This document shows positions 1 to 7,851 of a DNA stretch of 8,020 nucleotides, in pieces. Origin of the DNA: Desulfobacterales bacterium (lineage in GTDB: Bacteria > Desulfobacterota > Desulfobacteria > Desulfobacterales > JAUWMJ01); assembly GCA_030613225.1 (NCBI GenBank), contig JAUWMJ010000116.1, positions 1-8,020 of the forward strand, in the 5' to 3' direction. How positions within the stretch are numbered: the first letter of the stretch is position 1; each line of letters starts with the position of its first letter. The notes under the pieces were generated by a model that was not told the origin of the DNA, did no database searches, and saw nothing but the letters and a program-made list of their open reading frames with translations. Position numbers and translations under genes: made by a program.

Positions 1-1
1 T

Positions 2-160
2 AATGCCTGCATGGAGTGCGGGGCATGTGTTAATAACTGCCCTTCAAATGCAATAGAAGTAAGCCCGGGTGTAGGCTGAGCTACCTATATTATCCAGGTC
101 TGGATAAAAGGCAAGGAAAATGCATCCTGTGGTTCTTCTGACGGGCCAGGTTGCTGCTAG
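2..160 (+). CDS. hgcB: HgcB-type mercury-methylation ferredoxin, C-terminal part, with in-frame TGA read as selenocysteine (partial)
   Basis: The gene begins before the window. The visible part opens with a [4Fe-4S] cluster motif, CMECGACVNNCP (codons from position 8), the signature of the second cluster of HgcB, the ferredoxin thought to supply electrons and Hg(II) to the corrinoid protein HgcA in mercury methylation. The frame runs on as SNAIEVSPGVG to a TGA at 77-79. Reading through it gives ATYIIQVWIKGKENASCG and a terminal Gly-Cys-Cys before TAG at 158-160. Known HgcB proteins have a strictly conserved Cys after the GVG (Cys73 in strain ND132, as I recall) and a C-terminal Cys pair, so the TGA sits at that conserved Cys. 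A hairpin with a SECIS-type loop follows at once. Seen: the frame, motifs and hairpin. Known: the HgcB layout. Inferred: selenocysteine insertion. A sequencing error or a nonsense mutation is the alternative. hgcA should lie just upstream. Confidence 0.82.
90..107 (+). promoter_or_regulatory. Bacterial SECIS-like hairpin for the TGA at 77-79
   Basis: A perfect 6-bp stem (90-95 with 102-107) encloses the hexaloop AGGUCU (96-101). The loop starts 16 nt after the TGA, inside the 16-37 nt window usual for bacterial SECIS elements. The loop matches that of Escherichia coli fdhF, where a GGUC-containing apical loop binds SelB. The stem lies within the coding sequence, as bacterial SECIS elements must. 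It is A/U-rich below the C-G pairs, so the lower helix is weaker than in fdhF. Confidence 0.72.
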
Positions 161-190
161 AGCAAAAGCACTTTGGAAAGTACCCTAAGT

Positions 191-221
191 TTGCCAAAAA
201 CATTTATGGAAAAATTGGCAA
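191..221. terminator. Weak inverted repeat between convergent hgcB and methyltransferase genes
   Basis: TTGCCAA (191-197) pairs with TTGGCAA (215-221) across a 17-nt A/T-rich loop. It lies 30 nt past the hgcB stop and overlaps the methyltransferase stop codon at 204-206. Its place between two converging genes suggests a bidirectional terminator, but the stem is only 7 bp and no clean T-tract follows on either strand. Confidence 0.25.
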
Positions 222-887
222 TTGTTTGTTCCCAGGAGTTTTACTGCTTACCCGGTTAATAGAAAGGACGTTCGTGGCTTTTGTTTGGGAATGATTAGCA
301 TATGTGGGCCAGCTCGGCGAATAATCTTCTACTTCATTTCCCCATTGATCCCAATTTTTTCTAGTTCCACGAGCAAAAAGCTCCAGATAAGGTCCGGGGC
401 TGCAATCTTCAATGATATCATACAATTCATCAGGTTTTCTAGAATGTTCTCGTTTTCGGGTGCGTATAATGTTAACCTGGCTTCGTCCAGGTGCAAGAGT
501 TCGCAATTTTCCCTTTATACCAAAAAGTACCATTTCTGTTGTGTTTCTGAAATAAAATCCAACGCCCCGTCCATCAGGGCCTCCATCTTTACGCACCTTA
601 TGCCAGATCAAATTTGTTTTATACTGAAAGCCCCAGCATTTCATTACTTCGAGTCCTTGAGGCAAAAGTGCATTTGGAACCCATAAATACAAATGGCTGT
701 TTTGTTCTGCGACATCAGATACGGAAATTTCTTTAATATCATGCATTTTCAATGTGGAATATCTCGAAAGGCGACGATGTTCTGGGGCCATTTTCCCAGT
801 TCTGTTAGTAAAACGCCAAGGTGGGTCAGCCAAAATAGTACCATATATCCCTCTTACATTTGCTGCAAAATCTTCGGCTGCGCTCAT
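204..887 (-). CDS. MT-A70 family DNA N6-adenine methyltransferase of a type II R-M system
   Basis: A 227-residue protein, predicted to transfer a methyl group from S-adenosylmethionine to adenine N6 in the site cut by the partner endonuclease. The catalytic DPPW motif is at residues 21-24. YSTLKMHDI (43-51), the LYLWVPN strand (66-72), GVGFYFRNTTEMVLFG (108-123) and HSRKPDE (148-154) leading into LELFAR (168-173) follow in the order usual for MT-A70 proteins, with the SAM-binding part C-terminal to DPPW. About 40 C-terminal residues look like a poorly conserved tail. The ATG (887-885) directly follows the TAA of the endonuclease gene, and its Shine-Dalgarno AGAGGAT lies inside the end of that gene, so the two are translationally linked. 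Bacterial MT-A70 proteins are mostly DNA methyltransferases; the pairing here makes that role very likely. Confidence 0.9.
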   Translation of the reverse strand: MSAAEDFAANVRGIYGTILADPPWRFTNRTGKMAPEHRRLSRYSTLKMHDIKEISVSDVAEQNSHLYLWVPNALLPQGLEVMKCWGFQYKTNLIWHKVRKDGGPDGRGVGFYFRNTTEMVLFGIKGKLRTLAPGRSQVNIIRTRKREHSRKPDELYDIIEDCSPGPYLELFARGTRKNWDQWGNEVEDYSPSWPTYANHSQTKATNVLSINRVSSKTPGNKQLPIFP

Positions 888-1478
888 TTATTCATCCTCT
901 TTATACAGACGTTTTGTGATACCAAAAACCAGCAAGGGACATCCGGCACCGCTTCCACCTTCAATTCTGGGAATCAATCTGCTCATGTGAGTTGTGGACG
1001 CACCAAACGATTGACCTCTTCCCAAATCGTTAAAAATTTTCTGCAATTCGTCGCTGCGAGTTATAATAACGCCTACACTGATAGCTCTTAAGTCAAACAA
1101 AAGTCGAAAATTGTTTAAATCGCGATCATAAAATGGGTCTTTATTGTTCCATTCAATTTCCAGTGCAACCCTGTTTTTATAACAATCAATTTTGTGGGTG
1201 GGAGTATCCATAGTATTTTCATCAACAACAACTTGAGTTTGAAAACTCTTTTCGACCCATTCTCGCTGATAAAGAAATTCGTCAATAAAACCTGATATTT
1301 TAGACTTTCTGCCGCCACCAATAGAAAGATAGCTCTTTTTAAGTCTGAATGCTGTTAATACATCAATAATATCAGTCCACTCGTTTGGAAAATCATTGCA
1401 AAGGATAGCACAAGCATGTTTCCATTCATGAATCTCATAGTGATTTATAATAAATTCCGGTAACAGATTCGGTCCCAT
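888..1478 (-). CDS. BglII/BstYI-family type II restriction endonuclease
   Basis: A 196-residue protein matching the BglII/BstYI-like family seen next to MT-A70 methyltransferases. The core is HKIDCYKNRVALEIEWNNKD (residues 95-114) followed by RDLNNFRLL and a GVIITRSDELQ segment. Asp98, Glu107 and Glu109 reproduce the D-x8-E-x-(Q/E) spacing of the metal site of BglII (Asp84, Glu93, Gln95, as I recall), with Glu in place of Gln. A GASTTHMSRLIPRIEGG stretch and CPLLVFGI near the C-terminus are further family hallmarks. The likely target is GATC-centred, RGATCY (BstYI) or AGATCT (BglII), but this is inferred from the family only. The ATG at 1478 has AGGA about 6 nt upstream. It is the first gene of a two-gene operon, and no controller-protein gene is visible. 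Confidence 0.87.
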   Translation of the reverse strand: MGPNLLPEFIINHYEIHEWKHACAILCNDFPNEWTDIIDVLTAFRLKKSYLSIGGGRKSKISGFIDEFLYQREWVEKSFQTQVVVDENTMDTPTHKIDCYKNRVALEIEWNNKDPFYDRDLNNFRLLFDLRAISVGVIITRSDELQKIFNDLGRGQSFGASTTHMSRLIPRIEGGSGAGCPLLVFGITKRLYKEDE

Positions 1479-1510: not shown

Positions 1511-1562
1511 ACAATTAAAATTTAAAATACCAGGATGCAATATGAACCGGGCGCTCAAGCTA

Positions 1563-1771
1563 AGGGCTCGCGCAAAAATAACTTCACATTTTATGCACCC
1601 CAAGGGCATTTGCTTCGCGGCACATCCTGGATTCAGGCCAGCTTTGCCCGATCCTCAACTCCAAAATCCTCGAAATAGCTCGCTATTCCTGTGGTTTTGA
1701 AGCCTCGGATCGAACAAAGCTGGCCTGAATCCGGGATGCATAAAATGTGAAGTTATTTTTGCGCGAGCCCT
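1563..1771. repeat. 209-bp fold-back (long inverted repeat) element
   Basis: Outer arms of 35 bp (1563-1597 and 1737-1771) are perfect inverted copies, beginning AGGGCTCGCGCAAAAATAAC. Inside them, about 31-nt arms (near 1623-1653 and 1708-1736) pair with only a few mismatches around GATTCAGGCCAGCTTTG, and weaker pairing continues towards the centre near AAATAGC-TCGC-TATT. The left side has about 25 extra bases (1598-1622) absent from the right side. There is no open frame of note inside. It fills most of the 312-bp gap between the R-M operon and the exporter gene. The form fits a MITE-like or other non-autonomous palindromic element. Confidence 0.85.
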
Positions 1772-1790
1772 AAGTTAAGAGGTCTGGATT

Positions 1791-6629: not shown

Positions 6630-6716
6630 CTAAATTGCCCAAAAACATAATAAACTTCTGGCCTGTACTTTGAGCCTTTCTTTACCAGGCATAGTCAGGG
6701 CTGTAGGTTTTATCTT
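6630..6716 (-). pseudogene. Frameshifted C-terminal remnant of the REP-associated transposase
   Basis: Removing one T from the minus-strand run TTTT (6717-6720) joins the transposase frame to 28 more codons ending at a TAG (6632-6630). They include GKERLKVQARSLLCFWAI, which matches the start of the C-terminal helix-turn-helix region of full-length REP-associated transposases (R-x-x-V-x-ARSLLCFWAVREL). Beyond the TAG the match fades. The gene has thus lost its C-terminal DNA-binding domain by a frameshift followed by further decay. Confidence 0.7.
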
Positions 6717-7506
6717 AAAATAGTTGGCTACTATCCATTCGATCTAATGATACCCCTTTCGCTGCAAGCTGATATCTGTTCTCCATTGACTCTTGAGCTC
6801 TTTTAAGCACACTTTTAACAAAATCACTGCTGCCTAAAATTCGCTCATCACTTTTATAAAAGTCTTTGGCTTTACGAAGAGATTTAACCTGCTTCCAACC
6901 GCCGGCGCTTCGAATTAATCCACCGCCGGCAAACTCTGATCGTTTCCCTTGATTAATTCCATACTTTATAAATGCCCTATATCTTTGCCGGGCAAGGGAT
7001 ATATTATCAGAAAACAACTTATGTATATTTTCCACATCTTGCCAGGAATTCGGTTTCCTTCCCATGATAGTACTGTGGCCGGTATACGGGTACTTATCAA
7101 GAGCAGTTAAATCCTTTACAATTCCAACACGTAATGGATTTAAATGTATGTATCGAACAAGTTCCTTCAAATAAGCATCTTCCTCGCATAAAATTGATTT
7201 ATACCTGTTTTGAAACAAATGTCCTTGACGACGATGTCTTCTATTATGTGAAATCGCATACCCTGTTAACAGGCGTCTCATCACATTTGAAATCGGTACA
7301 CTTCCGGTTTTTAAAAGAAGATGAAAATGATTCGGAATCAATGCCCAGGCATAGCAGGTTGTTTCGGTATCCCCTATTATCTTTCCAAAACGTTCTACAA
7401 AACTTATCCTGTCTGCAAAGTCCTTAAATATTATACACCGCTCTATTCCTCTTACGATGATGTGATGTAATGCTCCAGGAGCATCTATTCTTGCTTGTCT
7501 TGGCAT
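6715..7506 (-). CDS. REP-associated tyrosine (Y1, HUH) transposase, C-terminally truncated
   Basis: A 263-residue IS200-like Y1 transposase of the RAYT (TnpA-REP) type, which nicks single-stranded DNA at REP hairpins through a 5'-phosphotyrosine bond. The N-terminus MPRQARIDAPGALHHIIVRG is typical. The metal-binding HUH motif is NHFHLLL (His60 and His62), GHLFQNRYKS (residues 95-104) is conserved, and the nucleophile is Tyr119 in RYIHLNP. All catalytic residues are present. Full-length relatives run to about 300 residues or more with a C-terminal helix-turn-helix; here the frame ends in a TAA created by an apparent one-base insertion, with the lost part still visible downstream. Activity without that domain is uncertain. 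No IS-type flanking ends are evident, which fits a RAYT. No strong ribosome site precedes the ATG at 7506. Confidence 0.88.
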   Translation of the reverse strand: MPRQARIDAPGALHHIIVRGIERCIIFKDFADRISFVERFGKIIGDTETTCYAWALIPNHFHLLLKTGSVPISNVMRRLLTGYAISHNRRHRRQGHLFQNRYKSILCEEDAYLKELVRYIHLNPLRVGIVKDLTALDKYPYTGHSTIMGRKPNSWQDVENIHKLFSDNISLARQRYRAFIKYGINQGKRSEFAGGGLIRSAGGWKQVKSLRKAKDFYKSDERILGSSDFVKSVLKRAQESMENRYQLAAKGVSLDRMDSSQLF

Positions 7507-7793: not shown

Positions 7794-7851
7794 GGTATAT
7801 ACTCAGGTGGATAGGCTGAAGCTTGCATGCCTATCCACCTGAGTATATACC
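7794..7851. repeat. Perfect 23-bp inverted repeat (long hairpin)
   Basis: Arms 7794-7816 and 7829-7851 are exact inverted copies, containing TATACTCAGGTGGATAGG, around a 12-nt loop (7817-7828). No mismatch or bulge is present. A/T-rich sequence follows but no T-run, so it is not a normal terminator. It stands alone in the 280-bp gap between the small coiled-coil gene and the next plus-strand gene beyond the window. No gene is visible in that gap. Confidence 0.9.

What the first reader, a model, noticed from the sequence alone, without database searches (positions are those of the whole stretch)
2..160. HgcB with selenocysteine at the conserved mercury-binding cysteine
The frame of an HgcB-type ferredoxin meets a TGA exactly where the family has an invariant Cys after GVG, and resumes with a family-like tail to a terminal Cys-Cys. 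Mutational work on HgcB names that Cys (Cys73 in ND132, as I recall) as important for methylation. Selenolate binds Hg(II) far more tightly than thiolate, so a Sec here would alter Hg handling between HgcB and HgcA. I do not recall a described selenocysteine HgcB. Gene callers would truncate such a protein, so others could be hidden in genomes and mercury surveys.
Basis: partly seen in the sequence, partly recalled or inferred. Interest (0 to 1): 0.93.

Follow-up and report, generated by a model that had tools for sequence, protein, structure and literature searches.

The report
Selenocysteine form of mercury-methylation ferredoxin HgcB
The window begins with the end of a mercury-methylation ferredoxin gene (hgcB) in which a UGA codon, followed by a hairpin predicted to direct selenocysteine insertion, likely encodes selenocysteine where other such proteins have an essential cysteine; selenocysteine forms of HgcB were already proposed in print in 2023, so this is another member of a known kind.

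Summary
Window 2-160 is the last 52 codons of an HgcB-type ferredoxin; TGA at 77-79 replaces the invariant Cys after GVG, and the frame runs on through a family-like tail to Cys-Cys-stop. Of 101 distinct HgcB loci read, window included, 61 have TGA there and 40 have TGC/TGT. After the TGA all 61 share a hairpin (window 90-107) with published bacterial SECIS geometry, and its stem codons are synonymously frozen while neighbouring codons vary. SelB passes its cut-off in 48 of 55 genomes with the TGA form. 41 of 61 genes also end in TGA, so recoding depends on context. All but one TGA row fall in one clade, in HgcA+HgcB and in HgcA-only trees. The 30 listed public proteins more than 73% identical to a full-length relative all stop at GVG. 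The idea is not new: a 2026 review lists HgcB with motif GVGU, crediting Haft & Gwadz 2023, which I could not read. What Sec changes in mercury handling is untested.

The parts
2..160 (+). 3' part of hgcB (52 codons and stop); the start of the gene lies before the window
   Evidence: NF040864 match to profile 44-93; nearest relative L093/L124, 90.5% identical DNA over window 2-188
8..43 (+). second 4Fe-4S motif CMECGACVNNCP
   Evidence: sequence; motif as described for HgcB in PMC7305189
77..79 (+). TGA, predicted selenocysteine codon, at the place of Cys73 of ND132 HgcB
   Evidence: TGA at this place in 61 of 101 distinct rows, Cys codon in the other 40
90..107 (+). predicted bacterial SECIS hairpin: 7-bp stem 90-96/101-107, apical loop GGUC 97-100, 17 nt after the TGA
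   Evidence: folds; geometry criteria of PMC13188914 Fig. 2 legend; stem identical in 61 of 61 TGA rows; synonymous freezing
128..157 (+). Cys-bearing tail ending in Cys-Cys
   Evidence: sequence; tail Cys residues as in the HgcB family

Best explanation
This is the 3' end of an hgcB gene whose in-frame UGA at 77-79 is likely read as selenocysteine, directed by a predicted SECIS hairpin at 90-107, so that the product would carry Sec where other HgcB proteins have the essential Cys73. Shown by sequence: the TGA sits at the conserved Cys position in 61 distinct loci; the tail after it is conserved as protein; the hairpin codons are frozen at the nucleotide level; selB is present in most genomes examined that hold the TGA form. 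Inferred: SelB with Sec-tRNA decodes the UGA on this hairpin, whereas UGA elsewhere in the same genes stays a stop. Inferred further, from a published HgcAB model: the Sec selenolate would take the role proposed for Cys73, accepting methylmercury from the Cys-Cys tail before release, while HgcA keeps Cys as its cobalt ligand.
For: TGA at the Cys site in 61 of 101 distinct rows, TGC/TGT in 40. In the 61, codons +4 to +9 after the TGA are ATT 61/61, ATC 61/61, CAG 60/61, GTN 59/61, TGG 61/61, ATA 61/61, while neighbouring degenerate codons vary. Of 185 conserved degenerate columns in HgcA (59 rows) and HgcB (61 rows) of TGA-form loci, 7 are at least 95% one codon: the 4 in HgcB are exactly stem codons, the other 3 are two-fold Phe/Glu columns in HgcA; 0 of 94 such columns are frozen in the Cys rows. 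Published bSECIS geometry met by 61 of 61 TGA rows and 14 of 40 Cys rows, Fisher p 2.5e-14 (criteria). SelB over cut-off in 48 of 55 genomes with the TGA form; tRNA-Sec over its gathering score in 7 of 9 tested. 41 of 61 of these hgcB genes end in TGA, and 2 of 8 other window genes checked end in TGA, so TGA is not globally reassigned. 59 of 60 TGA rows form one clade, support 99, in the HgcA+HgcB tree with the site masked, and all TGA rows but L121 do so with HgcA alone. HgcA keeps NVWC: a Cys codon in all 38 of 45 scan loci where the motif was found, and no internal stop in any listed HgcA match of the class survey (171 of 389 genomes matching, listing cut).
Against: The window's own genome is not held, so its selA/B/C/D were not seen. 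SelB is also present in 24 of 30 Cys-form genomes, so it permits but does not distinguish. 7 of 55 TGA-form genomes show no SelB; their contig numbers show them to be in many pieces, but I did not establish why. Energy alone is weak: window fold -8.8 kcal/mol, z -0.9, 40 of 200 shuffles fold as well; L001 folds at -6.9; 9 of 61 rows miss the -7.5 threshold, and folding 60 nt of the window gives a different best structure. Stem pairs never vary among TGA rows, so there is no covariation. The geometry contrast with the 40 Cys rows is partly one of residues: only 2 of those 40 have Gln-Val-Trp or a like Val codon there, whereas 47 of 87 Cys-type public proteins listed have Gln-Val-Trp, so Val there is not special to the Sec form; their DNA was not seen. 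Rfam gave no match in window 1-300. One public protein reads Leu at the site (P0070). No protein-level evidence exists here for Sec or for a mercury role.
Confidence: 0.92

Rival explanations
1. The TGA is a true stop: these lineages make a 72-residue HgcB lacking the Cys73 position and tail, and what follows is non-coding remnant.
For: Public gene calls of close relatives end at GVG (30 of the 120 listed, all those over 73% identical), but gene callers do that mechanically.
Against: After the TGA the amino acids stay conserved while synonymous codons vary outside the hairpin (K +10 AAA/AAG, G +11 four codons, A +15 four codons). In 70 of 76 loci, copies included, the reading ends in Cys-Cys. 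C73A abolishes activity in a relative.
Confidence: 0.03
2. TGA is decoded as another amino acid (Trp by code change, or plain near-cognate readthrough) without a SECIS.
For: The frame is open under any sense reading of TGA.
Against: TGA ends 41 of 61 of these same hgcB genes and 2 of 8 other window genes checked; the aligned codon in the 40 other distinct rows is always TGC/TGT; the stem codons are frozen only in TGA rows.
Confidence: 0.03
3. Assembly or sequencing error turned TGC/TGT into TGA in this window.
For: Single contig; no reads available.
Against: The same TGA is found in 60 other distinct loci, including the strain record of D. vacuolatum DSM 3385; window 2-188 is 90.5% identical to L124, which also has TGA.
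Confidence: 0.01
4. The selenoprotein is made but Sec at this site is neutral or serves redox or oxygen tolerance rather than mercury transfer.
For: No biochemical data on Sec-HgcB in any passage I read; Sec commonly gives reversible redox chemistry (general knowledge). The role of Cys73 itself is a model, not shown.
Against: Site kept as TGA across a large clade with no Cys row inside it in the sample; C73A abolishes methylation in ND132; the C-terminal Cys pair is kept in most loci.
Confidence: 0.35

Closest known systems
Selenocysteine HgcB, motif GVGU (NCBIfam NF040864, WP_250697400.1), Haft & Gwadz 2023 as listed in PMC13188914
   Same: Same family, same residue, same GVGU motif (review table passage read)
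   Different: This is another locus. Whether the 2023 paper reported the SECIS stem, clade or counts given here I could not check (not held).
Cys-type HgcB (ND132 and many lineages)
   Same: Dicluster ferredoxin next to hgcA, GVG-C site, Cys tail; often the same Gln-Val-Trp (47 of 87 listed Cys-type proteins)
   Different: TGC/TGT in place of TGA; stem codons not frozen in the 57 Cys rows read
Selenocysteine HgcA ('CU', NF040863, WP_250697417.1) listed in the same review
   Same: Selenoprotein in the same methylation complex
   Different: HgcA of the present clade keeps Cys: no internal stop in the listed class matches
Bacterial SECIS elements (consensus of PMC13188914 Fig. 2 legend)
   Same: G in the first two loop positions, 4-nt loop, 7-bp stem, 17 nt from the UGA
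   Different: Nearly invariant in sequence; not recognised by the Rfam search here

Membership tests
HgcB (NF040864) | Score over curated cut-off 99 bits | tested here: inconclusive
   Window piece 62.1 bits over profile 44-93, gene cut by window edge; relatives L001 125.2 and L028 124.5 pass
HgcB (NF040864) | Two CxxCxxCxxxCP cluster motifs | tested here: inconclusive
   Second motif present; first lies before the window; both present in relatives
HgcB (NF040864) | Strictly conserved Cys73 after GVG | tested here: inconclusive
   Position present but coded TGA, predicted to give Sec in place of Cys; the review files the GVGU form under this family
HgcB (NF040864) | C-terminal cysteines | tested here: met
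   Tail ends Cys-Cys
HgcB (NF040864) | hgcA next to it | not testable with these tools
   Upstream is off-window; hgcA motif found in 38 of 45 scan loci, and HgcA lies just upstream in L124's contig (G145:C286:586-1566)
Bacterial SECIS | 3-9 nt loop, 4-16 bp stem, G in first two loop positions, 16-37 nt spacing | tested here: met
   Window: 4 nt, 7 bp, GG, 17 nt; 61 of 61 TGA rows and 14 of 40 Cys rows
Bacterial SECIS | MFE at most -7.5 kcal/mol | tested here: met
   Window -8.8 over 46 nt; 52 of 61 TGA rows; another fold wins at 60 nt
Selenoprotein | SelB and tRNA-Sec in the genome | tested here: inconclusive
   Own genome not held; relatives: SelB 48 of 55, tRNA-Sec 7 of 9
Selenoprotein | Sec shown in the protein | not testable with these tools
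   Needs mass spectrometry or 75Se

The most novel reading that the evidence does not exclude
Sec-HgcB is an old, mostly once-gained class of the methylmercury machinery in which a selenolate, not a thiolate, is the methylmercury acceptor, carried by about a third of hgcB-bearing Desulfobacteria. Its SECIS arose from a hairpin that the IIQ-x-WI coding sequence of the Cys form already half made (14 of 40 Cys rows meet the geometry), so that few changes turned a Cys gene into a Sec gene. Surveys that rely on gene calls see only a 72-residue stump of it.
Probability: 0.35. Interest if true: 0.6.

Novelty: new member of a known kind. Interest (0 to 1): 0.4.

Why it matters
HgcAB makes methylmercury. 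If a large clade of Desulfobacteria uses selenium at the residue that HgcB of ND132 cannot lose, then selenium supply could affect methylation in those organisms, and the step in which Cys73 acts becomes open to direct testing with selenium labels and selenolate chemistry. For databases the truncation matters: the 30 listed public proteins closest to a full-length relative (over 73% identical) all end at GVG, so the tail and the key residue are missing from them.

Tried and rejected
Whole genome of the window: not held. Rfam scan of window 1-300 at E up to 10: no match, so no library SECIS model supports the hairpin. Folding energy against shuffles: not significant for the window; I rest on synonymous freezing instead. 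One of the six folds (L093) was given wrong coordinates and is not used. Covariation: impossible, the stem does not vary among TGA rows. Sec in HgcA of the same clade: looked for and not found. Sec at this site outside the class: in the phylum survey 116 of 395 genomes had HgcB; six listed matches held a TGA. One was G008 itself; the other five were fetched and all five have TGT/TGC at the site, the TGA lying elsewhere. A strict single origin: the 113-row tree needs two changes because L121 falls among Cys rows, and HgcA alone says the same (starred sets at 97 and 100); yet one clade is not rejected in the joint data (p-AU 0.308). L121's post-TGA 51 nt match L028 at 94% while its upstream 75 nt match the best Sec and best Cys rows equally at 75%, which neither shows nor excludes a transferred 3' end. 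SelB as a discriminator: rejected, 48 of 55 against 24 of 30. Val of Gln-Val-Trp as a mark of the Sec form or as forced by the SECIS loop: I held this from the 40 Cys rows and dropped it when 47 of 87 Cys-type proteins proved to have it.

A slip mended: the first protein search had wrong coordinates, its query ended at the TGA and lacked the tail; its list (119 of 120 ending at GVG) is biased towards truncated entries. I repeated it with the full-length gene: of 120 listed (588 found), 30 end at GVG, 87 have Cys after GVG, 2 have Cys after a variant GTG motif, 1 has Leu; the 30 are all those over 73% identical.

Rows dropped before counts: 9 of 45 scan loci did not match the site pattern; copies identical around the site were counted once; for the second tree L030, L032, L034 and L144 were left out as long branches, and the window row was left out by the program as too short. 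In some searches only the site column was masked; the tail columns stayed in, hence the HgcA-only control. The match listings were cut, so class counts are lower bounds. L048, L089 and L098 have a stop in the listed match but are Cys forms. The tRNA-Sec search scored at most 150 first-look candidates per genome, so its misses are weak.

Papers: PMC13188914: outline with abstract, section 5 whole and passages. PMC11588087, PMC7305189, PMC12013277: passages only. Haft & Gwadz 2023 (PMC9879109) and Haft & Tolstoy 2025 (PMC12013261): not held, nothing read. Searches for prior reports.

Full report
Observation. The window opens inside an open frame that ends at 158-160. Reading TGA as U, residues 1-52 hold the second ferredoxin motif (CMECGACVNNCP), GVG, U at 77-79, then ATYIIQVWIKGKENASCGSSDGPGCC. 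NCBIfam HgcB (NF040864) matches the piece at E 3.4e-17 over profile 44-93; it stays under the family cut-off because the gene is cut by the window edge, and longer relatives pass.

Recurrence. A scan of genome contigs with the 52-residue piece gave 45 loci; 36 matched my site pattern, 26 with TGA and 10 with Cys codons. A class-level survey (389 genomes of the class of G008, the genome of D. vacuolatum, which NCBI places in Desulfobacteria) found HgcB in 168. Among the listed matches 57 held a TGA and 56 of those have it at the GVG site, in 55 genomes; the listing was cut, so 55 of 168 is a lower bound. Pooled and with identical copies removed: 101 distinct rows, 61 TGA (window included), 40 Cys. 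The nearest is L093/L124, 90.5% identical over window 2-188, then diverging.

SECIS. Seventeen nucleotides after the TGA lies a GGUC loop on a 7-bp stem, UUAUCCA/UGGAUAA (window 90-107). The published model asks for a 3-9 nt loop, a 4-16 bp stem, G in the first two loop positions, 16-37 nt spacing and MFE at most -7.5. All 61 TGA rows meet the geometry and 52 of 61 also the energy; of 40 Cys rows 14 meet the geometry and 8 also the energy. The energy signal itself is weak and depends on the length folded. The stronger evidence is synonymous: the stem codons ATT, ATC, CAG, TGG, ATA are used in 61, 61, 60, 61 and 61 of 61 rows, although three of them encode Ile with three different codons and other conserved Ile codons of the same genes vary (major codon 0.59-0.74). 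Of 51 conserved degenerate HgcB columns only four, all stem codons, are frozen; of 134 in HgcA three two-fold columns are; none of 94 in Cys-type rows. The codon between Gln and Trp is Val in 59 and Gly in 2 of 61, always starting with G. In the 40 Cys rows it is mostly other residues, but among public Cys-type proteins Gln-Val-Trp is common (47 of 87 listed), so this Val is not a mark of the Sec form, and part of the geometry contrast comes from which Cys rows were in the sample.

Decoding. TGA ends 41 of the 61 genes (for L026 the script counted an earlier tail TGA; its frame also ends later at TGA) and 2 of 8 other window genes checked, so TGA keeps its stop meaning elsewhere. SelB passes its cut-off in 48 of 55 TGA-form genomes and in 24 of 30 Cys-form genomes. 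tRNA-Sec passes in 7 of 9 TGA-form and 4 of 5 Cys-form genomes tested. The machinery is thus common in this class and permissive for the change.

History. With the site masked, HgcA+HgcB of 106 rows (53 Sec, 53 Cys) puts all Sec rows on one side of a branch with support 99. Adding rows gave 113 (60 Sec, 53 Cys): 59 Sec in one clade, support 99, and L121 apart among Cys rows; a single clade is not rejected, p-AU 0.308. HgcA alone (111 rows, 59 Sec, 52 Cys) also needs two changes, and one without L121. No Cys row of the sample falls inside the large Sec clade. Outside the class, five fetched TGA-bearing matches of the phylum survey all have Cys at the site. HgcA keeps its Cys in all loci where the motif was read, and no listed class match holds an internal stop.

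Annotation. With a full-length relative as query (L124), 120 of 588 proteins found are listed: 30 end at GVG, 87 have Cys after GVG, 2 have Cys after a variant motif, 1 has Leu. The 30 are exactly those over 73% identical; they carry 72 residues as a rule. Where sources name them, the names are generic (4Fe-4S binding protein, ferredoxin family protein, PreA subunit). An earlier search whose query ended at the TGA listed 119 of 120 ending at GVG; that list is biased and is not relied on.

Function. In ND132 HgcB C73A abolishes methylation, and the published HgcAB model proposes that the C-terminal Cys pair hands methylmercury to Cys73 before release (PMC7305189, passages). A selenolate there would bind mercury more tightly (general chemistry, recalled) and could change capture or release. 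That is inference; no assay of Sec-HgcB appeared in the passages I read.

Known or new. A review of May 2026 lists 'Mercury methylation ferredoxin HgcB NF040864 GVGU WP_250697400.1' with reference 63, Haft & Gwadz 2023, and the 2024 PNAS paper on HgcAB repeats that some hgcA and hgcB homologs may be selenoproteins. So the kind is known.

Noticed in passing
window 204-1478 (-): MT-A70 methyltransferase (PF05063) and a BglII-type restriction endonuclease (PF09195) side by side: a likely restriction-modification pair just downstream of hgcB.
   Followed up: partly
window 1560-1774: Long inverted repeat: 42-nt arms 95% complementary enclosing a second 57-nt pair; may be a mobile element remnant.
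   Followed up: no
window 7794-7851: Perfect 23-nt inverted repeat with a 12-nt loop, near an IS200-like (Y1_Tnp) transposase at 6715-7506.
   Followed up: no
L026 and its copy L123 (HgcB tail): A second in-frame TGA, in the tail (NASC-U-DSGCC), aligned with Gly in relatives.
   Followed up: no
L129 (HgcB tail): Cys at the GVG site but a TGA in the tail where its relative L142 has Cys, and the frame goes on to Cys-Cys: a possible second Sec site in HgcB.
   Followed up: no
L127, L128, L089; P0122, P0127 and 45 other listed proteins: Cys-type HgcB with the Gln-Val-Trp of the Sec form (CAGGTCTGG in L127; 47 listed proteins). Precursors, revertants or chance; their place in the tree is untested except L127, L128 and L089, which fall outside the Sec clade.
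   Followed up: partly
L121: TGA-form HgcB whose HgcA places it among Cys rows; second gain or transferred 3' end.
   Followed up: partly
L079 and L090 (one genome, G371): Two hgcB copies in one genome, both TGA form.
   Followed up: no
P0070: A public HgcB with Leu at the site and a tail of the Sec type; substitution or sequencing error.
   Followed up: no
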